Position numbers and translations under genes: made by a program. From Dehalococcoidia bacterium (GTDB taxonomy: Bacteria > Chloroflexota > Dehalococcoidia > DSTF01 > JACRBR01), in the NCBI GenBank assembly GCA_040902535.1, contig JBBDXD010000018.1, forward strand, positions 186,001 to 250,000: a DNA stretch of 64,000 nucleotides, given 5' to 3'. Positions 5,204 to 31,154 of the stretch are shown piece after piece. Every line of letters starts with the position of its first letter. Position 1 is the stretch's first letter. The notes beneath the pieces were generated by a model, which had not been told where the DNA came from, made no database searches, and worked only from the letters and a program-made list of their open reading frames with translations.

Positions 5204-6448
5204 TCAGCGCCGCTGGCGAAGCACGTCCTCGTACAGGTCTGCGGTACGCAATGCGCAGGCGCGCCACGAGAACTGCTCGCTGATGCGCCGGACGCCCGCC
5301 GCGCCCATTTCCGCACGCCGGACAGGGTCGCGGAGCAGCGCGGTCATCGCGTCGGCGAGGGCTGGCGCATCGCCCGGCGGCACGAGCACCCCCGTCTCGT
5401 CGTGGACGACGGTCTCCGGGAACGCGCCGGCCGTCGTGGCGATGACTGGCGTGCCGCAGGCCATCGCTTCGGCCGCCGGCAGGCCGAAGCCCTCGTACAG
5501 CGACGGCGAGACGACGATCTGCGCCTCGTTGTACAGCCGCACGAGATCGTCGACCGACTGCCTGCCGAGAAACGTCACCCGGTGCTCGAGGCCCAGCCTG
5601 CGGAGCATCGGCGGCACCATCTGCGCGTTCGTCCGGTCCTTGAACGTGAGGTGGAAGTCGACGCCGCGATCGTCGAGGATCTTCGCTGCTTCGATGAGAT
5701 AGCGCGCGCCCTTGTTCTGGTCGTCGGAGTTGCCGACGAAGAGGATCTCGTTCGGGCGCTTCGCGATCTCGAGCGGCCGGAAGATACGCGTGTCCACGCC
5801 ATCGTGGATCGTGGTGATCCGGTCGCGGCGCAGGGAGAACGCACCGGCGACGGAGGCACGCGAGTTGTGCGATCCGGTGATGATGCGGTCCATGCGGCGC
5901 GCGACGAGTTCCTGCATGAAGAACGGATAGAACATCGCCTTGCGGATCTTCATGCGGGTGCCGCGCGCCTGCTGGATCTGGTTCATGCGGTCAATCGACA
6001 GCGGGTGGTGGATGTTCGCCACCACCGGCATGCCGGAGGCGTGGATCATCAGCGAGCCGTAGCCGAGGACCTGCACGTCGTGGACGATGTCGAAGCGATG
6101 CTCGCGCTGCAACTCGCGCCATTTCATGTACGCGCGCCAGCTAAACGCCGACATGACGGAGAACTGGCCGACGCGGCTCGTCGCGAGCTCATAGAAGTTG
6201 AGCGGGTGGAAGAAGCTGCGCGGCTCGCGGCCGTAGAACCACATCTCCTCCTTCTCGAGCAGGCGGTAGACGCTGTACGACGGCACCTTGTGGAGGGTGA
6301 CCGCGGGATCGGCATCGGGCCAGGGAGGGCCGACGGCGAGATGCACGTCATGGCCGAGGGCGGCTAACTCGCGCGTGACCTCCGTCGTGTAGACGCCCTG
6401 GCCGCCGGAGTACATGTTCCCCTGGTGGAGGAGGAAGAGGATTTTCAT
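5204..6448 (-). CDS. GT4-family (GT-B fold) glycosyltransferase
   Basis: This is a 414-residue retaining glycosyltransferase. The N-terminal acceptor domain begins MKILFLLHQGNMYSGGQGVY, with the usual Gly-rich loop. The C-terminal nucleotide-sugar domain holds NEILFVGNSDDQNKGARYLI, the paired-glutamate motif YEGFGLPAAEAMACGTPV (about residues 335-352) and ETGVLVPPGD. It has no transmembrane helix, so it probably acts at the inner membrane face on a lipid-linked or small-molecule acceptor. Its neighbours give no pathway clue and the sugar donor cannot be assigned. Confidence 0.9.
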   Translation of the reverse strand: MKILFLLHQGNMYSGGQGVYTTEVTRELAALGHDVHLAVGPPWPDADPAVTLHKVPSYSVYRLLEKEEMWFYGREPRSFFHPLNFYELATSRVGQFSVMSAFSWRAYMKWRELQREHRFDIVHDVQVLGYGSLMIHASGMPVVANIHHPLSIDRMNQIQQARGTRMKIRKAMFYPFFMQELVARRMDRIITGSHNSRASVAGAFSLRRDRITTIHDGVDTRIFRPLEIAKRPNEILFVGNSDDQNKGARYLIEAAKILDDRGVDFHLTFKDRTNAQMVPPMLRRLGLEHRVTFLGRQSVDDLVRLYNEAQIVVSPSLYEGFGLPAAEAMACGTPVIATTAGAFPETVVHDETGVLVPPGDAPALADAMTALLRDPVRRAEMGAAGVRRISEQFSWRACALRTADLYEDVLRQRR

Positions 6449-23700: not shown

Positions 23701-24104
23701 GCCTGGTCCCGGGCATGGAGTCATCCGGCACGTATCTCGAAGCGCTCGGCGCCGCGACGATCATGTTCCCGTCGTTCGTACAGTCGCTCGACGGCGGCTG
23801 GACGTACCAGCTGATCCTGTTCGCCGAGGCGATCGCGTTCGTCGTGTTGAGCGTCGCGTTCCGGCGCCAAGGCATGCTTGCGGCGGCGCTCGGGGCGCTG
23901 GTGCTGGTGGCGGGGCGAGCGGTCTTCGACACGGTCAACGCGCTGCCGAACTGGATCGTCGCGATGCTCGGCGGCGCGCTGCTGCTGGGCGCCGGTATGG
24001 CGGTGCTGATCGCCCGCGACCGCTGGATGCAGTGGCAGGAGACGGTGCTGGGGTGGTGGACGAGCGAGGGCGGCGGCCCACGTACAAACGACGGCGCCGC
24101 ATAG
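20793..24104 (+). CDS. Very large zinc-ribbon polytopic membrane protein
   Basis: This 1103-residue protein starts at ATG behind GGAGG. Residues 9-29 are a double-CxxC zinc ribbon (YCTNCGRG ... YCNQCGW). A ~90-residue linker follows, then about 970 residues of almost continuous hydrophobic helices, very Ala-rich and probably 25-30 transmembrane segments. Similar zinc-ribbon plus DUF2157-like giant membrane proteins are known from actinobacteria and Chloroflexota without an established function. The segment DEASTYELSTRWYLPSAAAL echoes SFEISTRWFLPATLVAFTAF earlier, which hints at internal duplication of helix blocks. Confidence 0.75.
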   Translation: MSQIDPIHYCTNCGRGVPVGSPYCNQCGWPAVAGPKERVRQVATILNELSAPTMRSAIPAEAHAGLEAHYTVELETFVAPRSTPQRQSTAPARRTVAVAAKPREPMDWSWLADQQANLLLFAGAFLTIVAALIYVGYSEQAVSGALKMTLLAGYTLAFIAAGAACLRSPRVVMAGHVFLGVGAVLVPMNFAAARSIFGGGDLGAESMWFAGSVVSAAFYTAIARIGLGRGYAVAAGVALISAAIAAIVAFDVPSEWAPLVGIATAALLVAPLLFADDVTKRRIGEIWQFHAHAAAIGAVAWALGVAGWAADDPSFEISTRWFLPATLVAFTAFAAAPMLRTRRTEFGVEAIAGAGGIALAALYPFDLPAEAYAVALAAVATSFGVARLAARRADIARVLPRAFDEVLYGFGIGATVIAALAAFLVLQTALDEASTYELSTRWYLPSAAALVAAFYAIDAFAVRSRAGLAGTFVSVGVLLPSLAWALDARAEYYAFFFLVPAGALIAFVRWAADGDVTGKLHNEWRDDASWAPRAAAAAGAAIALGAAVESMLPDTAYEPQFSTFLPVALALAALVAAIDASRLPRVETSIASCALVAATIASVPYVYDAPATHYGAALAAAAVALAALRAVNVTWLDARVRDGVAVVALVLATVPFEVAYADGDPRIGAAVHFVAALVFALAAISRAPRDGSDALRFSFTPNSVWLYASGLALTVGYVFALRSMPAAENAEAGTLAIPFAVLAAGFAFAGAGLRRWRPAVRGHVYIMSLLVALVSLSMAPDALALAWLLTTFVALYAALALYEDAPIVATPTAVLGVLAVLAWREQFDASTELLPIAFSAIGVAAFAAAIAIRKVQHEWSVALRTGGATYALIAPIAGFAAMTIEQGDANVGQTALYQWTTLAVAVAGALAIVEAALSGRRWIVVPASATLVLSLLLQIARFEPENVQAYTLVIGAYVVLLGAVGLSRYRLVPGMESSGTYLEALGAATIMFPSFVQSLDGGWTYQLILFAEAIAFVVLSVAFRRQGMLAAALGALVLVAGRAVFDTVNALPNWIVAMLGGALLLGAGMAVLIARDRWMQWQETVLGWWTSEGGGPRTNDGAA

Positions 24105-24193
24105 GCGGCGGGTGGGTTAGGATCCTCTGGGCGGCCTCCACGCGGCGGCGCCCTGCCGCGCTTGCACGCCTCGCGGCGGGCGATCTACAATTG

Positions 24194-24223
24194 TTGATGT
24201 AATCGCTTAACTTTAGGGACTAT
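24194..24223 (+). promoter_or_regulatory. Candidate promoter/operator for the cysteine cluster
   Basis: TTGATG at 24194-24199 and GACTAT at 24218-24223 are 18 bp apart in a locally AT-rich stretch just before the Rrf2 gene. An Rrf2 autoregulatory site would be expected here, but no clear palindrome is visible. Confidence 0.4.
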
Positions 24224-24242
24224 CCCCGCTCCAGATTCAATT

Positions 24243-24671
24243 ATGCGTATTTCGACCAAAGGTGACTACGGCGTCCGCGCCCTCATCGAGTTGTCTCATC
24301 ATTATGGTGAGGGGCCGATCCAGAGCGCGGAGATTGCCGCCCGCCAGCGGATCCCGGAGCCGTACCTGGACCAGCTCCTCACGACGCTGCGGAAGGCGGG
24401 ATTCATCCGGAGCGTCCGGGGGCCGCAGGGCGGCCATGCGCTGATCCACCGGCCAGAGGAGGTGCGTCTGAGCGAGGTGATCCGCACGCTCGAGGGCTCG
24501 CTCTCGCCGGTATCGCACCTGCACGACGAGGGATACCAGTGCCGCGCCGCGCACGAGGTTTGGCACACCGTCGAAACCGCAACCGAGAAGATCCTGGACG
24601 GCGTAACGATCGGCGATCTGGCCGCTCGAGAATTGGAGTACGACCGCAATGGCGGACGCTACGTCATCTAG
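24243..24671 (+). CDS. Rrf2-family transcriptional regulator (CymR-like)
   Basis: This 142-residue regulator has the winged helix MRISTKGDYGVRALIELSHH and the family hallmark VRGPQGGHALIHRPEEV. Iron-sulfur Rrf2 proteins such as IscR carry three clustered cysteines. Here only one Cys (YQCRAAHEVW, about residue 100) is present, as in CymR, the cysteine-metabolism repressor of Firmicutes, which signals through CysK. The gene overlaps cysK by 23 bases, which strongly supports control of cysteine synthesis. The CymR parallel is inference from one feature plus context. Confidence 0.85.
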   Translation: MRISTKGDYGVRALIELSHHYGEGPIQSAEIAARQRIPEPYLDQLLTTLRKAGFIRSVRGPQGGHALIHRPEEVRLSEVIRTLEGSLSPVSHLHDEGYQCRAAHEVWHTVETATEKILDGVTIGDLAARELEYDRNGGRYVI

Positions 24672-25605
24672 CCCGGCGCGGGCGATCGTCACCGGCGGCA
24701 TCGCGGACAGCGTGCTCGAGCTGATCGGCAACACGCCGATGGTGCGCCTGAAGCGCATCGCGCCGCCCGACGGGGCCGAGATCCTGGGCAAGCTGGAGTC
24801 GCTGAACCCGGCGGGCAGCGTCAAGGATCGCATCGCGCTTTCGATGATCGAGGCGGCGGAAGCAGCGGGCGAACTGAAGCCCGGCGATACGATCGTCGAA
24901 CCGACGTCGGGCAACACGGGCATCGGGCTGGCGATGGTGGCGGCGGTGAAGGGTTACAAGCTCGTGCTGACGATGCCGGAGGACATGAGCGTCGAGCGGC
25001 GGCGGCTGCTGACGCGCTTCGGGGCGCAGCTTGTGCTGACGCCGGCCATCGAGGGCATGACGGGCGCCGTGTACGCCGCGCAGGAACTGGTCGAGAAGAA
25101 CGAGTCGCACTTCATGCCGCAGCAGTTCAACAACGCCGCGAACCCGGAGATCCACCGCCGCACGACGGCGCGCGAGATCCTGCAGCAGACCGAAGGGCGC
25201 GTCGATGCGCTGGTGGCGGGGGTGGGGACGGGCGGCTCGATCACGGGCATCGGCGAAGTGCTGAAGAAGGAGCACGCGGGCCTCCTGGTCGTGGCCGTCG
25301 AGCCGCAGAAGTCGCCCGTGCTCGCGGGCGGCAAGGCGGGCATCCACGGCATCCAGGGCATCGGCGCGAGCTTCGTCCCGAGCGTGCTGAACCGCCAGAT
25401 ATACGACGAGCTGATCGCGGTGAAGGACGAAGACGCGTTTGCGATGACGTCGCGGCTGACGCGTGAGGAGGGGCTGCTCGTCGGCATCTCCTCGGGTGCG
25501 AACGTATTTGCGTCGCTGCAGGTGGCAAAGCGGCTCGGCCCGGGCAAGCGCATCGTGACGATGCTGTGCGATACCGGCGAGCGATATCTGAGTGTTAGCC
25601 TTTAA
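24649..25605 (+). CDS. cysK: Cysteine synthase (O-acetylserine sulfhydrylase)
   Basis: This 318-residue fold-II PLP enzyme carries the PLP lysine in NPAGSVKDRIALSMIE, the substrate loop EPTSGNTGIGLAMVAAVKG, the phosphate clamp GVGTGGSITGIGE and LVGISSGANVFASL. It forms cysteine from O-acetylserine and sulfide in the cytosol. It starts within the Rrf2 gene. A second, distinct cysteine synthase (cysM, 27262) lies in the same cluster, so two routes, free sulfide and carrier-bound sulfur, may coexist. Confidence 0.95.
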   Translation: MADATSSSPARAIVTGGIADSVLELIGNTPMVRLKRIAPPDGAEILGKLESLNPAGSVKDRIALSMIEAAEAAGELKPGDTIVEPTSGNTGIGLAMVAAVKGYKLVLTMPEDMSVERRRLLTRFGAQLVLTPAIEGMTGAVYAAQELVEKNESHFMPQQFNNAANPEIHRRTTAREILQQTEGRVDALVAGVGTGGSITGIGEVLKKEHAGLLVVAVEPQKSPVLAGGKAGIHGIQGIGASFVPSVLNRQIYDELIAVKDEDAFAMTSRLTREEGLLVGISSGANVFASLQVAKRLGPGKRIVTMLCDTGERYLSVSL

Positions 25606-25728
25606 GTAGACGAAACGAGAAAGCGAGAGATTCGCATGGACCACGGACATCTGCACATCGACCGCGCGACGGGCGTCGTGAGTCCGGCGTCGCATCTCCC
25701 GCAACCCGCATACCGCGGAGGAGGGCGC

Positions 25729-26916
25729 ATGCCTGTATCCGTCTACATCCCGACGCCGTTCCGCAAGCTCACCGGCAACCGGCAGAACGTCGAGGCGGAG
25801 GGCAAGGACGTCGCCGAAGTGCTGGCGAACGTCGACAAGCAGTACCCGGGCTTTCATCAGCTCGTGTTCGGCAGCGGCCAGGAAGTGCCGGCGCACATCA
25901 ACATTTACCTGAACAAGCAGGAGATCGCGTCGCTCGAAGGGATCGCGACGAAGGTGAAGGACGGCGACGAAGTGGCGGTGATCCCGGCGATGGCCGGCGG
26001 CGCAGACGCCGCGCAGCCGGCGAAGCGCACGGCAGGCGCGCTGACGCCGGACCAGGTGAACCGCTATTCACGGCACATCATCATGCCGCAGGTGGGGCCT
26101 TCCGGTCAGCGCAAGATCATGGAGTCGAGCATCCTGATCATCGGCGCCGGCGGCCTCGGCTCGCCGATCGCCGTGTACCTGGCGCTCGCGGGCATCGGGA
26201 AGATCGGCATCGTCGACTTCGACACCGTCGACCTGTCGAACCTGCAGCGGCAGATCCTGCACCAGAACGACGACATCGGCAAGTCGAAGGCCGTGTCGGC
26301 GAAGGAGACGATCAACGCGTACAACCCGGATGTCGACGTGGTGGTACACGACGTGCCGATCACGTCGGATAACGCGCTGGAGATCATCGAGCAGTACGAC
26401 TACGTGATCAACGGCGCCGACAACTTCGCGGCGCGGTACCTGGTGAACGACGCGTGCTTCTTCCTGAAGAAGCCGCTTATCGATGGCTCGATCCTGCTGT
26501 TCGACGGGCAGGTGACGGTGTACCTGCCCGACAAGGGCTGCTACCGCTGCCTCTACCCGTCGCCGCCGCCGCCCGGCATGGTGCCGAGTTGCGCTGAGGC
26601 AGGCGTGCTGGGCGCGCTCTGCGGCACCGTCGGCACGATCCAGGCGACGGAGGTGGTGAAGCTCATCCTGGGCGTCGGGGACTCGCTGCACGGACGCTTG
26701 CTGCTCTACGACGCACTCGCGATGGAGTTTCGGCAGGTGCGCATCCGCAAGGACCCCAACTGCGTGCTTTGCGGCGAGAATCCGACCGTCACGGAATTGA
26801 TCGATTACGACGCGTGGTGCGGCGGCGCGTTCGAACATACCAACGAAGAAGAGCAGAAGGCCGCCGAGGCCGCGGCGAAGCTGCGCGAGAAATCCGCCGC
26901 TTCGATGAACGCGTAG
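25729..26916 (+). CDS. Fused MoaD/ThiS-like carrier and MoeB-type E1 adenylyltransferase
   Basis: This is a 395-residue fusion starting at ATG 25729 behind a strong GGAGGAGGG. An in-frame ATG at 25636 would add 31 non-conserved residues (MDHGHLHIDRATG...). Residues 1-92 are a ubiquitin-fold sulfur-carrier domain ending AVIPAMAGGA. From residue ~105 comes the E1-like domain: LTPDQVNRYSRHIIMPQVG, the ATP loop IIGAGGLGSPIAVYLALAG and two zinc CxxC pairs (CYRC, CVLC). There is no C-terminal rhodanese domain. It should adenylate or thiolate a carrier, most likely the CysO encoded next; the built-in carrier domain is either a second substrate or a regulatory copy. Confidence 0.88.
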   Translation: MPVSVYIPTPFRKLTGNRQNVEAEGKDVAEVLANVDKQYPGFHQLVFGSGQEVPAHINIYLNKQEIASLEGIATKVKDGDEVAVIPAMAGGADAAQPAKRTAGALTPDQVNRYSRHIIMPQVGPSGQRKIMESSILIIGAGGLGSPIAVYLALAGIGKIGIVDFDTVDLSNLQRQILHQNDDIGKSKAVSAKETINAYNPDVDVVVHDVPITSDNALEIIEQYDYVINGADNFAARYLVNDACFFLKKPLIDGSILLFDGQVTVYLPDKGCYRCLYPSPPPPGMVPSCAEAGVLGALCGTVGTIQATEVVKLILGVGDSLHGRLLLYDALAMEFRQVRIRKDPNCVLCGENPTVTELIDYDAWCGGAFEHTNEEEQKAAEAAAKLREKSAASMNA

Positions 26917-26984
26917 CAGACGGCGCGGGTCGTCGCGCGCGGCCGGGCCGTCACGAATTCACAGGGGCGGGGAAGAAACGACGT

Positions 26985-27260
26985 ATGGCCGTGGAAGTGA
27001 AAGTCACATCCGTGCTGCAGAAGATCACCGGCGCGAAGGTCGTGCGGGGTGAAGGGGGCACGGTCTCGGAACTGCTCTCGAACCTCGATACGCAATATCC
27101 GGGGTTCAAGAACCAGATCATGCAGGACGGCAGCCTGCACCGATTCGTGAACATCTACCTCAACGACGAGGACATCCGGTATCTCGATCAACTCGACACG
27201 CGCGTGAAGGAAGGCGACTCGGTGTCGATCCTGCCCGCGCTTGCCGGCGGCCGGAGCTGA
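26985..27260 (+). CDS. cysO: Ubiquitin-fold sulfur carrier protein (CysO/MoaD-like), GG followed by two residues
   Basis: This 91-residue beta-grasp protein begins MAVEVKVTSVLQKITGAK and has the family block YPGFKNQIMQDGSLHRFVNI. It ends LPALAGGRS. Carriers of this type need a C-terminal Gly-Gly for thiocarboxylation; here Arg-Ser follows the GG, so maturation would require removal of two residues, probably by a JAMM peptidase (the job of Mec/QbsD in related systems). No such gene is in this window. The ATG at 26985 is chosen because the longer frame upstream is Arg-rich and overlaps moeB. The next gene, cysM, starts one base after the stop. Confidence 0.85.
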   Translation: MAVEVKVTSVLQKITGAKVVRGEGGTVSELLSNLDTQYPGFKNQIMQDGSLHRFVNIYLNDEDIRYLDQLDTRVKEGDSVSILPALAGGRS

Positions 27261-27261
27261 C

Positions 27262-28197
27262 GTGCTGTACGAAAGCATGATCGACGCCATCGGCAATACG
27301 CCGCTCGTCGAGATGCCGCGCATGAGCCCGAAGGCGTCGGTGCGGCTGTACGCGAAGCTCGAAGGTCAGAACCCGAGCGGCAGCGTCAAAGACCGCATCG
27401 CGAAGTACATGATCGAGGACGCCGAGCGTCGCGGCGTGCTGACGAAGGATCGCACCGTACTCGAGCCGACGTCGGGCAACACGGGCATCTCGCTGGCGAT
27501 GATCTGCCGGCTCAAGGGCTACAAGCTCAAGGTCGTCATCCCGGAAAGCGTTAGCTCGGAGCGGACCGAGTTGTTGCGCGCGTTCGGCGCCGAGATTGTG
27601 TACTCGGACGGCGCGCGTGGCACCAACGGGTCGATCGAAGTGGCGCAGCAGATCGCGGCCGAGGATCCGGCGTATTTCATGCCGTACCAGTACGGCAACG
27701 AGATGAACCCGCGCGCGCACTACGAGACGACGGGGCCGGAGATCCTGCGCGACCTGCCGGAGATCGACGTGTTCGTCGCGGGCATGGGCACGGGCGGCAC
27801 GCTGACGGGCGTCGGGCGCTACCTCAAGGAGCAGAAGCCCGGCGTGAAGATCGTCGCGGCGGTGCCGCATCCGGGCGACCTCGTGCAAGGGCTGCGCAGC
27901 CTCGACGAGGGATTCATCCCTCCCGTGCTGGACGAGAGTCTGCTGGATGGCAAGATCGTGATCGACTCGCACACGTCGTTCGCTTCGGCGAAGGAGTTGA
28001 CGCAGGTCGAGGGCATCTTCGCCGGCATCTCGGCCGGCGCCGTGCTGAAGACGGCGCAGCGGGTCGCCGAGCGCCTCGACGCCGGTAATATCGTCTGTCT
28101 GTTCGCGGACGCCGGCTGGAAATACCTCTCAACGCAGTTATGGACGACGAACTACGAAGACCTGCCGGAGGATATCGAAGACAAGATCTGGTGGTGA
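27262..28197 (+). CDS. cysM: CysO-dependent O-phosphoserine sulfhydrylase
   Basis: This 311-residue PLP enzyme has lysine in NPSGSVKDRIAKYMIED and loops EPTSGNTGISLAMICRLKG and GMGTGGTLTGVGRYL. It matches the mycobacterial CysM rather than CysK in its C-terminal half: LRSLDEGFIPPVLD (containing the arginine used to select phosphoserine), VEGIFAGISAGAVL and ADAGWKYLSTQ. The C-terminus ends in an aromatic DIEDKIWW tail. The family uses CysO-thiocarboxylate as the sulfur donor. The start is GTG 27262 with GGAG upstream; the gene lies directly after cysO. Confidence 0.9.
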   Translation: MLYESMIDAIGNTPLVEMPRMSPKASVRLYAKLEGQNPSGSVKDRIAKYMIEDAERRGVLTKDRTVLEPTSGNTGISLAMICRLKGYKLKVVIPESVSSERTELLRAFGAEIVYSDGARGTNGSIEVAQQIAAEDPAYFMPYQYGNEMNPRAHYETTGPEILRDLPEIDVFVAGMGTGGTLTGVGRYLKEQKPGVKIVAAVPHPGDLVQGLRSLDEGFIPPVLDESLLDGKIVIDSHTSFASAKELTQVEGIFAGISAGAVLKTAQRVAERLDAGNIVCLFADAGWKYLSTQLWTTNYEDLPEDIEDKIWW

Positions 28198-28249
28198 CCG
28201 CCGGCCGCGCACGCGGCCCCTTCGGAGTGCAGGGCGCCGGGCAATGGCC

Positions 28250-28255
28250 CATACT
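28250..28255 (+). promoter_or_regulatory. -10 box of a probable leaderless promoter
   Basis: CATACT lies seven bases before the ATG at 28263 without an SD. It is the counterpart of TATACT at 30128 before the paralogous gene. Confidence 0.5.
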
Positions 28256-28262
28256 TCGGGAC

Positions 28263-29318
28263 ATGGAACACGACGTCCGGTACTGCACGACGGAGGACGG
28301 CGTCAGCATCGCCTACGCCGTTACGGGAGAGGGCCCGCCGCTCCTCGCGTGCCCCCTGTTCATCGAGTCATTCGCGCTCGACCACATGGTGCCGGCCTTT
28401 GAACAGTTCATGCACGCACTGGGACGCAACACGCGGTTGGTCCGTTTCGACATGCGAGGCACCGGTCTCTCGGACCGCAACGTCGCAGACTTTTCCCTTG
28501 CAGGCTTGATTCGCGACCTGGACGCGGTGGTGACGGCCACGGGGATCGAGTCAATCGACGTCTGGGCGCCGTTGGGGAGCGTCATGCGGGCGATTGGGTA
28601 TGCGGCCGAGCGGCCGCAGCGTGTGCGCAAGCTCGTCCTCCACGAAGCGCATGCATCGGGTTCCGGCGTCTTTGCGCCAGAGGCCATGACCGGATTCGCC
28701 GCGCTCGCACGCTCCGACTGGCGCGCGGCGGCTCACGCGATCGCCGGCGCCGGGAGTCGCTGGCCCCGAGAGCATGTGCGTGGCCTTCACATGGCGGGCG
28801 AATGGAACCTGGAGTCAACAAACGGCGAGATGTGCGCCCGCTTCATCGAAGCTCTGAGCAAGACGAGCGTCGCCAGCTTGCTGCAACGGGTAGCAGCGCC
28901 GACGCTGATCCTTCACGCCCAGCGCGACCGTCTCGTCACGACGGATGTCGCGCGGGAGGTCGCGGCGAACATCGCCAATAGCCGCTTGCGCATCCTCGAC
29001 CGGGAAGGGCTCGTCTTCGCGACGGAGGACACTAGCCGTGAGACGATTGATGCGGTCGAAGAATTCCTGTACGAGACGCCGCGCGCGGCAGAAGCACGCA
29101 TGGTGACGCTCGGGACGGGAGCACGGGTGTCCGTGACTCCCCGCGAGTTGCAAGTGCTGCGGTTGATCGTTGCCGGCAAAAGCGGACGCGAGATCGCTGA
29201 CGAACTGGTGCTCAGCCCGCGTACGGTTGAGCGCCACGTCGCGCACCTGTTCCGCAAGACGAACACGCATGGACGAGCCGAACTCGTCGGGTTTGCCGTG
29301 CGCCGGAACCTCGTGTAG
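28263..29318 (+). CDS. Alpha/beta-hydrolase-fold sensor fused to LuxR-type HTH, paralogue 1
   Basis: This is a 351-residue protein. Residues 1-270 have an alpha/beta-hydrolase fold (RFDMRGTGLSDRN, LILHAQRDRLVTTDVA). Residues 285-351 are a GerE/LuxR DNA-binding domain (TPRELQVLRLIVAGKSGREI ... RTVERHVAHLF). The nucleophile elbow, normally GxSxG, reads DVWAPLGSVM and no Ser sits at the elbow position, so it looks like a ligand-sensing regulator and not an enzyme. It is paralogous to the gene at 30141. The region downstream leads into a secreted cupin, the likely target. The ATG follows a CATACT box by seven bases. Confidence 0.82.
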   Translation: MEHDVRYCTTEDGVSIAYAVTGEGPPLLACPLFIESFALDHMVPAFEQFMHALGRNTRLVRFDMRGTGLSDRNVADFSLAGLIRDLDAVVTATGIESIDVWAPLGSVMRAIGYAAERPQRVRKLVLHEAHASGSGVFAPEAMTGFAALARSDWRAAAHAIAGAGSRWPREHVRGLHMAGEWNLESTNGEMCARFIEALSKTSVASLLQRVAAPTLILHAQRDRLVTTDVAREVAANIANSRLRILDREGLVFATEDTSRETIDAVEEFLYETPRAAEARMVTLGTGARVSVTPRELQVLRLIVAGKSGREIADELVLSPRTVERHVAHLFRKTNTHGRAELVGFAVRRNLV

Positions 29319-29984: not shown

Positions 29985-30007
29985 AAGCACGCGTTCAAGG
30001 GTGGGGT

Positions 30008-30040
30008 GGGGGCCCGGTTGCAGATGCCACCCGGGCCCCC
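30008..30040 (+). terminator. Rho-independent terminator after the cupin gene
   Basis: GGGGGCCCGG at 30008-30017 pairs perfectly with CCGGGCCCCC at 30031-30040. A short T-run follows. It begins about 24 bp after the cupin stop. Confidence 0.75.
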
Positions 30041-30127
30041 TTTCCGCGTCCCCGCGCCGCCAACGCTCTTCCGGGGCACGCGTGCGCCTCTGGGGCGGGC
30101 CACCCACTGTGCCCTGCCCATGGCGCC

Positions 30128-30133
30128 TATACT
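30128..30133 (+). promoter_or_regulatory. -10 box of a probable leaderless promoter
   Basis: TATACT lies seven bases before the ATG at 30141, with no SD. It is near-consensus and in the same position as CATACT before the paralogue at 28263. Confidence 0.55.
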
Positions 30134-30140
30134 CTGGGCG

Positions 30141-31154
30141 ATGGAACACGACATCCAGTACTGCACGACGGGCGACGGCGGCAGCATCGCCTATTACACG
30201 CTGGGCGAGGGCGAACCCCTCGTAGTGACTTCCACCGTGCTCTGGAGTCACCTGCAGTTGCCACCCTTCGCCGAGTATCACCCGACCGACAACCCCGAAG
30301 GGCTCGGGTGCGGTCTGGAGATCGTGCGCTATGACGCGCGTGGCACCGGGCTGTCCGGCCGGGATTCCCTCGATTTCAGCCTCGACGCGCGCGTACGCGA
30401 CCTTGAAGCCGTCGTGGAGCGGTTGAAGCTGAAGCGATTCGCGATCCTTGGGCCGTTGCATGGCGGGCCCGCGGCTATTGCATATGCGGTGCGCCACCCG
30501 GAGCGCGTATCCCACCTCATCCTGTTAGGTTCCTACGCCCGCGGAAGCGATAACCGGCACGCCTTTCGACACTTTGACTCGTGGGTAGAGAGGGCTCACG
30601 AACATTGGACGACCTACACGCTCACTATCGCCAACTCCAACACGTTCTTCACAGATAGCGAGCGGGGGAGGAAGCTTGCCGCCCTCTACCGCGAATCGAT
30701 GACACCGGATTCGGTACGCGCGTTCCTCGAATCGCAGATCACCATCGACGTGACCGCGCTCCTCCCGCTGGTCGCCGCACCGACGCTTGTGATGCAGGTT
30801 GCGCTGCCGAGCAACATGCCGCAGCTGGAATGGTCGCGCGAGCTGGCGTCGGCGATTCCAGATGCGCACTTCGTGACCATCGCGAGCCACAGATGGACAG
30901 AGGAGGAGACGCGGGTGGTGGAAGACTTCCTCGGCGTGGGTCAGCCGCATGCTTCCGGCACCGCGGGCCTTACGGCTCGCGAAATGGAAGTACTGCGGCT
31001 GATCGTGGTGGGAAAGAGCAGCCGCGAGATTGCAACTGCATTGATCCTCAGTCCGCGCACGGTTGAGCGGCACGTCGCGAACATTTACCGGAAAACGGAC
31101 ACACACGGGAGAGCCCAGCTCACGGGCTTTGCCCTGCGTCGAAGTCTCGTCTAG
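30141..31154 (+). CDS. Alpha/beta-hydrolase-fold sensor fused to LuxR-type HTH, paralogue 2
   Basis: This 337-residue paralogue of the gene at 28263 has the same opening (MEHDIQYCTT) and the same architecture: hydrolase fold to about residue 255, then a LuxR/GerE domain (TAREMEVLRLIVVGKSSREI). The elbow reads AILGPLHGGP, with Leu where the catalytic Ser of LGxSxGG would be, so activity is unlikely. The two genes share about half their residues by eye. It lies upstream of a lipoprotein esterase whose leader copies the cupin leader, pointing to a duplicated regulator-target module. Confidence 0.82.
   Translation: MEHDIQYCTTGDGGSIAYYTLGEGEPLVVTSTVLWSHLQLPPFAEYHPTDNPEGLGCGLEIVRYDARGTGLSGRDSLDFSLDARVRDLEAVVERLKLKRFAILGPLHGGPAAIAYAVRHPERVSHLILLGSYARGSDNRHAFRHFDSWVERAHEHWTTYTLTIANSNTFFTDSERGRKLAALYRESMTPDSVRAFLESQITIDVTALLPLVAAPTLVMQVALPSNMPQLEWSRELASAIPDAHFVTIASHRWTEEETRVVEDFLGVGQPHASGTAGLTAREMEVLRLIVVGKSSREIATALILSPRTVERHVANIYRKTDTHGRAQLTGFALRRSLV

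What the first reader, a model, noticed from the sequence alone, without database searches (positions are those of the whole stretch)
26985..27260. CysO carrier ends GG-RS and needs C-terminal trimming
Sulfur carriers act through a terminal Gly-Gly. This one ends AGGRS. In related systems (QbsE/QbsD, CysO/Mec) a JAMM peptidase removes extra residues or releases cysteine. No JAMM gene is in the window. A regulated processing step for cysteine synthesis is implied.
Basis: partly seen in the sequence, partly recalled or inferred. Interest (0 to 1): 0.55.

Follow-up and report, generated by a model that had tools for sequence, protein, structure and literature searches.

The report
Capped CysO; JAMM trimmer found elsewhere
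The sulfur-carrier protein here really is made with two extra residues after its working Gly-Gly end, and the protease expected to trim them is present elsewhere in the genome; such capped carriers turn out to be common in this group of bacteria, and in this genome every sulfur carrier found has extra residues.

Summary
CysO (26985-27260, 91 aa, ThiS family) ends LPALAGG-RS. The inference that it must be trimmed is sound. The proposed test came out positive: the genome holds one Mec-type JAMM (Prok-JAB, 80.9 bits, intact E and HxHx7SxxD), on another contig. The "regulated" step is not supported, because the cap is unconserved. Same-family relatives have S, A, C, SGIAWEQRRR or none. Caps occur on 28 of 38 CysO-type proteins read in the class, and on 54 of 80 named CysO loci. 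Capped carriers trimmed by a JAMM are published (PtmS2 GG-MV, QbsE), so this is a new member of a known kind. The cap codons also hold a likely ribosome site (GGAG) for cysM.

The larger result came in passing. All six carrier domains found in this genome run past GG, and it has one E1 and one Mec-type JAMM. Across the phylum, running past GG tracks the JAMM: 40 of 40 chosen JAMM-positive genomes have such a carrier, against 4 of 14 JAMM-negative ones (1 of 11 after dropping three 93-94% complete genomes). One JAMM may therefore mature the cysteine, thiamine and molybdenum-cofactor carriers here. That is untested, and there are exceptions.

The parts
24243..24671 (+). Rrf2-family transcription regulator, first gene of the apparent cys operon
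   Evidence: Pfam Rrf2 117.6 bits; CymR model 119.7 bits, below its cut-off of 195, so not called CymR
24649..25605 (+). CysK-type cysteine synthase
   Evidence: TIGR01139 cysK 444.6 bits, over its cut-off of 350.95
25636..26916 (+). E1-like adenylyltransferase (ThiF/MoeB type) with an N-terminal ThiS-type carrier domain and no rhodanese match; the true start may be the ATG at 25729
   Evidence: Pfam ThiF residues 144-376 and ThiS residues 36-122; the only PF00899 hit in the genome at E 0.001
25996..26001 (+). Internal Gly-Gly codons of the E1-fused carrier domain (residues 121-122), followed by a variable linker
   Evidence: GG kept in 25 of 25 loci that have the domain, 24 of them fused in frame; linkers vary
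26985..27260 (+). CysO-type sulfur carrier, 91 aa, ends AGG-RS
27252..27257 (+). Cap codons CGG AGC (Arg-Ser) after Gly-Gly
   Evidence: sequence; variable in relatives
27253..27256 (+). GGAG, a plausible Shine-Dalgarno site of cysM lying inside the cap codons, 5 nt before the GTG at 27262 (inference from sequence)
27262..28197 (+). CysM-type cysteine synthase (O-phosphoserine sulfhydrylase type)
   Evidence: best solved matches are chains of cysteine synthase B / O-phosphoserine sulfhydrylase 3dwg, 3dki (M. tuberculosis, recalled), E 5.6e-89; query Arg212 aligns with the Arg recalled as Mtb Arg220

Best explanation
CysO is made as a capped pro-carrier. A Mec-type JAMM metalloprotease, encoded on another contig, is proposed to cut after Gly-Gly and remove Arg-Ser. 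The E1 encoded just upstream then adenylates the freed glycine and a sulfurtransferase converts it to a thiocarboxylate. CysM, using O-phosphoserine, makes the CysO-cysteine adduct, and the same JAMM hydrolyses it to release cysteine. The cap is most likely a neutral coding by-product, tolerated because the JAMM is nearly always present. Here it also carries the likely ribosome site of cysM. It is not a regulatory switch. Shown here: the capped sequence, the operon, the single E1, the single Mec-type JAMM with its full motif, and the cap's hypervariability. Inferred: cleavage, its site, the order of steps, and neutrality.
For: Capped end. Mec-type JAMM in the genome with Glu24 and HSHTATEGYPSPTD, best solved match 2kks. 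It is 60-63% identical to JAMMs that lie beside cysO in relatives G012, G013, G014 and G017. Neighbours CysM and E1. Among 39 genomes of the class with a CysO-type protein, the JAMM lies within 6 kb of cysO in 19, on another contig in 18, and was not found in 2 that are 84% and 90% complete; contig breaks can hide linkage. In the window's own family the JAMM instead follows a rhodanese and two genes without a Pfam match. Literature passages: deleting the JAMM gene ptmS1 of Streptomyces platensis abolished a pathway that uses capped carriers ending GG-MV and GG-C (PMC6006322).
Against: No biochemical data. The JAMM is not linked to cysO in this family. The E1 lacks the rhodanese of mycobacterial MoeZ, so the sulfur donor is unknown; a rhodanese next to the JAMM is only suggestive. 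A CysK in the same operon could make cysteine without CysO. Another peptidase could do the trimming. G015 has a capped CysO (AR) and no JAMM found, though it is 90% complete.
Confidence: 0.8

Rival explanations
1. The cap is removed by a general carboxypeptidase or another protease; the JAMM only releases cysteine from CysO-cysteine.
For: The JAMM gene is unlinked in this family. MoaX of M. tuberculosis is cut after Gly82 by a protease the authors left unidentified (PMC4326299 passages). Some genomes with no JAMM found have capped carriers.
Against: Running past GG tracks Prok-JAB presence across the phylum. A JAMM is required for MoaD-MoaE activation in Deinococcus (PMC8832034 passages) and for the capped-carrier pathway in Streptomyces.
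Confidence: 0.1
2. The RS cap is a selected, regulatory pro-segment that delays CysO activation.
For: A cap does block the glycine until removed (family knowledge).
Against: Cap sequence and length differ among genomes of one family and the cap is absent in two of them. Caps also occur on ThiS and MoaD, where no such control is expected.
Confidence: 0.05
3. Caps are kept mainly by selection at the DNA level: their codons host start signals of the downstream gene, and the JAMM makes the extra residues harmless.
For: GGAG of cysM lies in the CysO cap. The Arg caps of MoaD and ThiS come from CGATGA, whose ATG begins moaE and a ThiO-like gene. Four of 34 named CysO loci looked at (L256, L264, L265, L276) have a cap ending in a TGATG overlap with cysM.
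Against: Most of the capped genes among those 34 do not overlap the cysM start, and an uncapped one (L279) does.
Confidence: 0.35
4. This CysO is not a sulfur donor for CysM but a ubiquitin-like modifier or a relic.
For: It scores 58 bits on the SAMP1 model, just under the cut-off of 60.
Against: Strong core conservation and invariant GG. A CysM-type gene is found in 28 of 30 class loci with this carrier; one of the other two is cut by a contig end. Closest to CysO-type chains in the PDB.
Confidence: 0.06

Closest known systems
Capped sulfur carriers PtmS2/PtmS3 with JAMM PtmS1, Streptomyces platensis (PMC6006322; passages read)
   Same: Carrier with one or two residues after GG, and one JAMM in the genome needed for the pathway that uses them. 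Four Streptomyces CysO loci fetched here end in the same GG-MV.
   Different: There the JAMM gene clusters with ptmS2, and two of the four carriers are uncapped. Here the JAMM is unlinked and every carrier found runs past GG.
M. tuberculosis CysO / CysM / Mec / MoeZ (PMC3227635; passages read)
   Same: CysO-type carrier, O-phosphoserine-type CysM next to it, JAMM in the genome
   Different: The solved chain of Mtb CysO ends at GG. MoeZ has a rhodanese domain and, as I recall, no fused carrier; this E1 is the reverse.
QbsE/QbsD, thioquinolobactin (QbsD cited in PMC6006322; original paper recalled, not read)
   Same: JAMM removes residues after GG before activation
   Different: Siderophore pathway, dedicated pair (recalled)
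DRJAMM and the MoaD-MoaE fusion, Deinococcus radiodurans (PMC8832034; passages read)
   Same: A bacterial JAMM freeing a Gly end from a longer carrier
   Different: Full fusion partner rather than a two-residue cap
JAB + ThiS/MoaD + E1 + cysteine synthase operons, type 4c (PMC1779556; passages read)
   Same: Same kinds of gene, reported for Chloroflexus among others
   Different: There the E1 is fused to rhodanese; here the E1 is fused to a carrier domain and the JAB gene lies elsewhere

Membership tests
CysO-type sulfur carrier | ThiS-family beta-grasp domain | tested here: met
   PF02597 60 bits, cut-off 22.5; TIGR01687 MoaD family 55.4 bits, cut-off 49.5
CysO-type sulfur carrier | C-terminal Gly-Gly | tested here: met
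   GG present and invariant in 22 aligned sequences, but followed by RS
CysO-type sulfur carrier | Beside a CysM-type O-phosphoserine sulfhydrylase | tested here: met
   Adjacent gene, best solved matches are Mtb-type CysM chains
CysO-type sulfur carrier | Activated by an E1 with rhodanese (MoeZ type) | tested here: not met
   E1 has a ThiS domain and no rhodanese match
CysO-type sulfur carrier | Forms a thiocarboxylate used by CysM | not testable with these tools
   needs biochemistry
Capped carrier trimmed by a JAMM (QbsE/PtmS2 type) | Residues after GG in the gene product | tested here: met
   RS
Capped carrier trimmed by a JAMM (QbsE/PtmS2 type) | Mec/QbsD-type JAMM in the genome | tested here: met
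   PF14464 80.9 bits, full motif, 60-63% identical to cysO-linked JAMMs of relatives
Capped carrier trimmed by a JAMM (QbsE/PtmS2 type) | JAMM cleaves after GG | not testable with these tools
   needs purified proteins
SAMP1 (NF041918) | Score over the curated cut-off of 60 | tested here: not met
   58 bits
CymR regulator (for the Rrf2 gene) | Score over the curated cut-off of 195 | tested here: not met
   119.7 bits

The most novel reading that the evidence does not exclude
In this Dehalococcoidia genome no sulfur carrier is translated in active form. CysO, ThiS, two MoaDs, a SAMP1-like carrier and the E1-fused carrier all run past Gly-Gly, and one E1 and one Mec-type JAMM were found. That JAMM would be a master maturation protease gating cysteine, thiamine and molybdenum-cofactor sulfur together. 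Its near-constant presence would let caps and fusions (MoaD-MoaE, ThiS-ThiO, ThiS-ThiG, carrier-E1) arise freely across Chloroflexota.
Probability: 0.5. Interest if true: 0.65.

Novelty: new member of a known kind. Interest (0 to 1): 0.42.

Why it matters
The capped CysO alone is ordinary. The wider pattern suggests that in many Chloroflexota one metalloprotease is a single point of control for every sulfur-carrier pathway, as deubiquitinases are for ubiquitin precursors. It also suggests how carrier fusion genes can exist without disabling the carrier. It predicts a simple phenotype: removing one JAMM gene should block several pathways at once.

Tried and rejected
Rejected: absence of a JAMM (one search finds one). 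Rejected: a sequencing slip (variable caps in relatives). Rejected: the idea that caps are peculiar to CysO. The ThiS and MoaD 'controls' I set up, expecting clean GG ends, were themselves capped or fused in 16 of 30 and 26 of 30 loci read (of 31 and 56 matches listed). A promoter and terminator scan of 24100-28400 gave nothing useful.

Results against the JAMM-cap link. In JAMM-positive genomes 50 of 134 carriers end at GG; in JAMM-negative genomes 9 of 26 do not (Fisher p 0.0096 on carriers). Eight of those nine lie in G202, G165 and G151, assemblies 93-94% complete (contamination 5, 9 and 1) from families whose other sampled members carry a JAMM (in G151's family G098 also lacks one). Dropping these three was decided after seeing the counts; it gives 1 of 15 (p 2.9e-5). 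The ninth, G158 (99% complete, ends GGA), stays as an exception. In the class sample, 12 of 60 relatives have no Prok-JAB at 1e-5; capped or fused carriers were read in four of them: G010 (92% complete, MoaD GG-CDV), G015 (90%, all four carriers read), G016 (77%, MoaD-MoaE) and G037 (64%, paralogue GG-R). JAMM-positive genomes also have more carriers each, which inflates the per-genome contrast. Genomes are not phylogenetically independent. Rows without GG near the match end (3 and 3) were dropped. The 40 JAMM-positive genomes were hand-picked for completeness of 95 or more; ThiS ends of eight had already been seen. One of the 138 listed matches was not read. Half of the 40 JAMM-negative handles were not printed; I inferred them from the gaps in its numbering, and the counts agree.

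Errors corrected: the JAMM query was translated out of frame, so its JAMM identities are void; one search repeats it in frame. The first GG-junction script required a GG; one search repeats it without that. An earlier count said 76 of 80 loci with a JAMM motif; the output shows 77. Wanted but not possible: the same test in a second phylum. No structure prediction was run.

Full report
What is there. The ORF at 26985-27260 (+) encodes a 91-residue ThiS-family protein ending LPALAGGRS. Its two nearest solved relatives, 4n6e_B and 3dwg_C, end exactly at GG. It lies in a same-strand gene set: Rrf2 regulator, CysK, an E1 with an N-terminal carrier domain, CysO, CysM. CysM begins at GTG 27262. The cap codons CGG AGC contain GGAG five bases before that start. 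CysM matches chains of cysteine synthase B / O-phosphoserine sulfhydrylase best (3dwg and 3dki, 5.6e-89), and its Arg212 aligns with the arginine that I recall as the O-phosphoserine-binding Arg220 of M. tuberculosis.

Where the window comes from. The class is Dehalococcoidia in Chloroflexota. This is inferred from named contigs of the same length as contigs of unnamed same-class relatives: JAIBBD010000056.1 (14894 bases, Dehalococcoidia bacterium SSF39, as G059:C110) and SHYD01000068.1 (12947 bases, Dehalococcoidia bacterium Baikal-deep-G110, as G039:C31).

The JAMM. A search of the whole genome (28 contigs, 96% complete) found one strong Prok-JAB, G000:C28:215435-215785 (-), 80.9 bits, and one weak hit that is RadC. 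The protein is 136 aa with Glu24 and HSHTATEGYPSPTD, the full JAMM motif (the motif definition is recalled). It is 60-63% identical to JAMMs that lie beside cysO in G012, G013, G014 and G017, so it is probably the same gene moved away. In the window's own family it follows a rhodanese and two genes without a Pfam match; all four genes are found together in G000, G001, G004, G006 and G007, and part of the set in G003 and G005. Among 39 class genomes with a CysO-type protein it is within 6 kb of cysO in 19, on another contig in 18, and not found in 2. These counts leave out 7 of the 46 genomes tallied, whose best match was the SAMP1-like paralogue.

The cap is real but not conserved. Of 38 CysO-type proteins read in the class, 28 run past GG by 1-19 residues, with caps such as S, A, C, SR, AAPLG and SETPFASAPR. 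Within the own family caps are RS, S, A, C, SGIAWEQRRR, none and none; an eighth is cut by a contig end. The scan for named loci kept the best 80 of 570 relatives, their titles mostly Chloroflexota and Actinomycetota. Of these 80, 54 are capped, and 77 hold at least one JAMM-like motif in some frame (motif only, chance hits not excluded). Four Streptomyces loci end in GG-MV, the cap reported for PtmS2. Hypervariability next to an invariant GG argues against a regulatory signal and for a tolerated tail.

Beyond CysO. The genome has six PF02597 domains at E 0.001 and none ends at GG. They are the SAMP1-like protein (A), MoaD (R), CysO (RS), the E1-fused domain (20-residue linker into the E1), a second MoaD (11 residues) and ThiS (AR). 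The Arg caps of MoaD and ThiS both arise from CGATGA, in which the ATG begins the next gene, a MoaE (137.9 bits) and a DAO-family protein, by its place ThiO-like (258.1 bits). There is one E1. In the class, ThiS runs past GG in 16 of 30 loci read (3 fused or long) and MoaD in 26 of 30 (13 fused or long), and a SAMP1-like paralogue in 12 of 30. Among 60 further ThiS loci of the phylum, from 59 genomes all Prok-JAB-positive, 29 run past GG.

Does running past GG track the JAMM? In a sample of 221 genomes of the phylum at least 93% complete, 181 have Prok-JAB at E 1e-6 and 40 do not. Of the 40 without, 25 have no PF02597 carrier at E 1e-5. In the remaining 15, 9 of 26 GG carriers run past GG. In 40 hand-picked JAMM-positive genomes outside the class, 84 of 134 do. 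By genome: 4 of 14 against 40 of 40 (Fisher p 4e-8). Leaving out three 93-94% complete assemblies from mostly JAMM-bearing families gives 1 of 11. A permissive search of 16 genomes without a strong hit, these three included, gave only weak matches; I scanned three of them (from G010, G110 and G171) and all are RadC. The link is one-way: many JAMM-positive genomes also have clean GG carriers, and there are capped carriers in a few assemblies without a JAMM, listed in Tried and rejected.

Mechanism. E1 enzymes adenylate the terminal glycine carboxylate, so a cap must go first. Published cases are capped carriers in Streptomyces, where deletion of the JAMM gene ptmS1 abolished product (PMC6006322, passages), and MoaD-MoaE in Deinococcus (PMC8832034, passages). 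MoaX of M. tuberculosis is cut after Gly82 by an unidentified protease (PMC4326299, passages). In the CysO pathway Mec also hydrolyses CysO-cysteine (PMC3227635, passages). One enzyme that cuts after GG whatever follows would serve both jobs, and that would relax selection on the tail. I infer that caps are tolerated by-products, some of them shaped by start signals of the next gene. The E1-linked carrier domain keeps GG in 25 of 25 class loci that have it (23 by direct alignment; the other two, L004 and L030, read); it is fused in frame in 24 and in a different frame in L012. The linker varies, so this carrier may be released the same way.

Literature on novelty. Searches for sulfur carrier protein + JAMM + CysO (no paper), ThiS + MoaD + JAMM + sulfur carrier + C-terminal glycine, QbsE/QbsD and sulfur-carrier protein + JAMM + capped returned no paper whose listing described capping of all carriers of a genome or JAMM trimming of ThiS. 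Of the papers listed there I read passages of two only, PMC8832034 and PMC6006322. The library holds open-licence papers only, and several original papers (QbsE, CysO/Mec, HcyS) were not read.

Verdict. Observation confirmed; trimming inferred correctly; JAMM found; regulation unsupported. The CysO cap is a new member of a known kind. The genome-wide capping and its link to the JAMM are the part worth testing.

Noticed in passing
G000 C15, C18, C19 (loci L070, L331-L335); window 25741-26001 and 26985-27260: All six ThiS/MoaD-type carrier domains found in the genome run past Gly-Gly; none is translated in an active form.
   Followed up: yes
window 25636-26916: The only E1 found in the genome carries its own carrier domain at the N terminus, with GG followed by a variable linker, and has no rhodanese match. 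In L012 (G009) the same carrier domain lies in a different frame from the E1.
   Followed up: partly
L001:1459-3351: In the window's family the JAMM follows a rhodanese, a 121-aa protein and a 210-aa protein, the last two without a Pfam match; the order is kept in sister genomes.
   Followed up: partly
L332:1734 and L070:1698: The stop of capped moaD and thiS overlaps the start of moaE and a thiO-like gene as CGATGA; in some relatives the same pairs are fused genes, so caps may be steps between separate genes and fusions.
   Followed up: partly
L016 (G017:C96, reverse strand, about 5274-5543): A CysO whose end repeats itself, LPALAGGGLPALAGGAR: two Gly-Gly sites in tandem.
   Followed up: no
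G158:C37:13212-13445 (L169): MoaD-like protein ending PPMGGA in a 99% complete genome with only a weak JAB match (19.6 bits); an exception to the pattern.
   Followed up: no
window 28140-29318 and 30006-31154: Two similar proteins, apparently alpha/beta hydrolase plus C-terminal LuxR-type helix-turn-helix (by eye, no search run).
   Followed up: no
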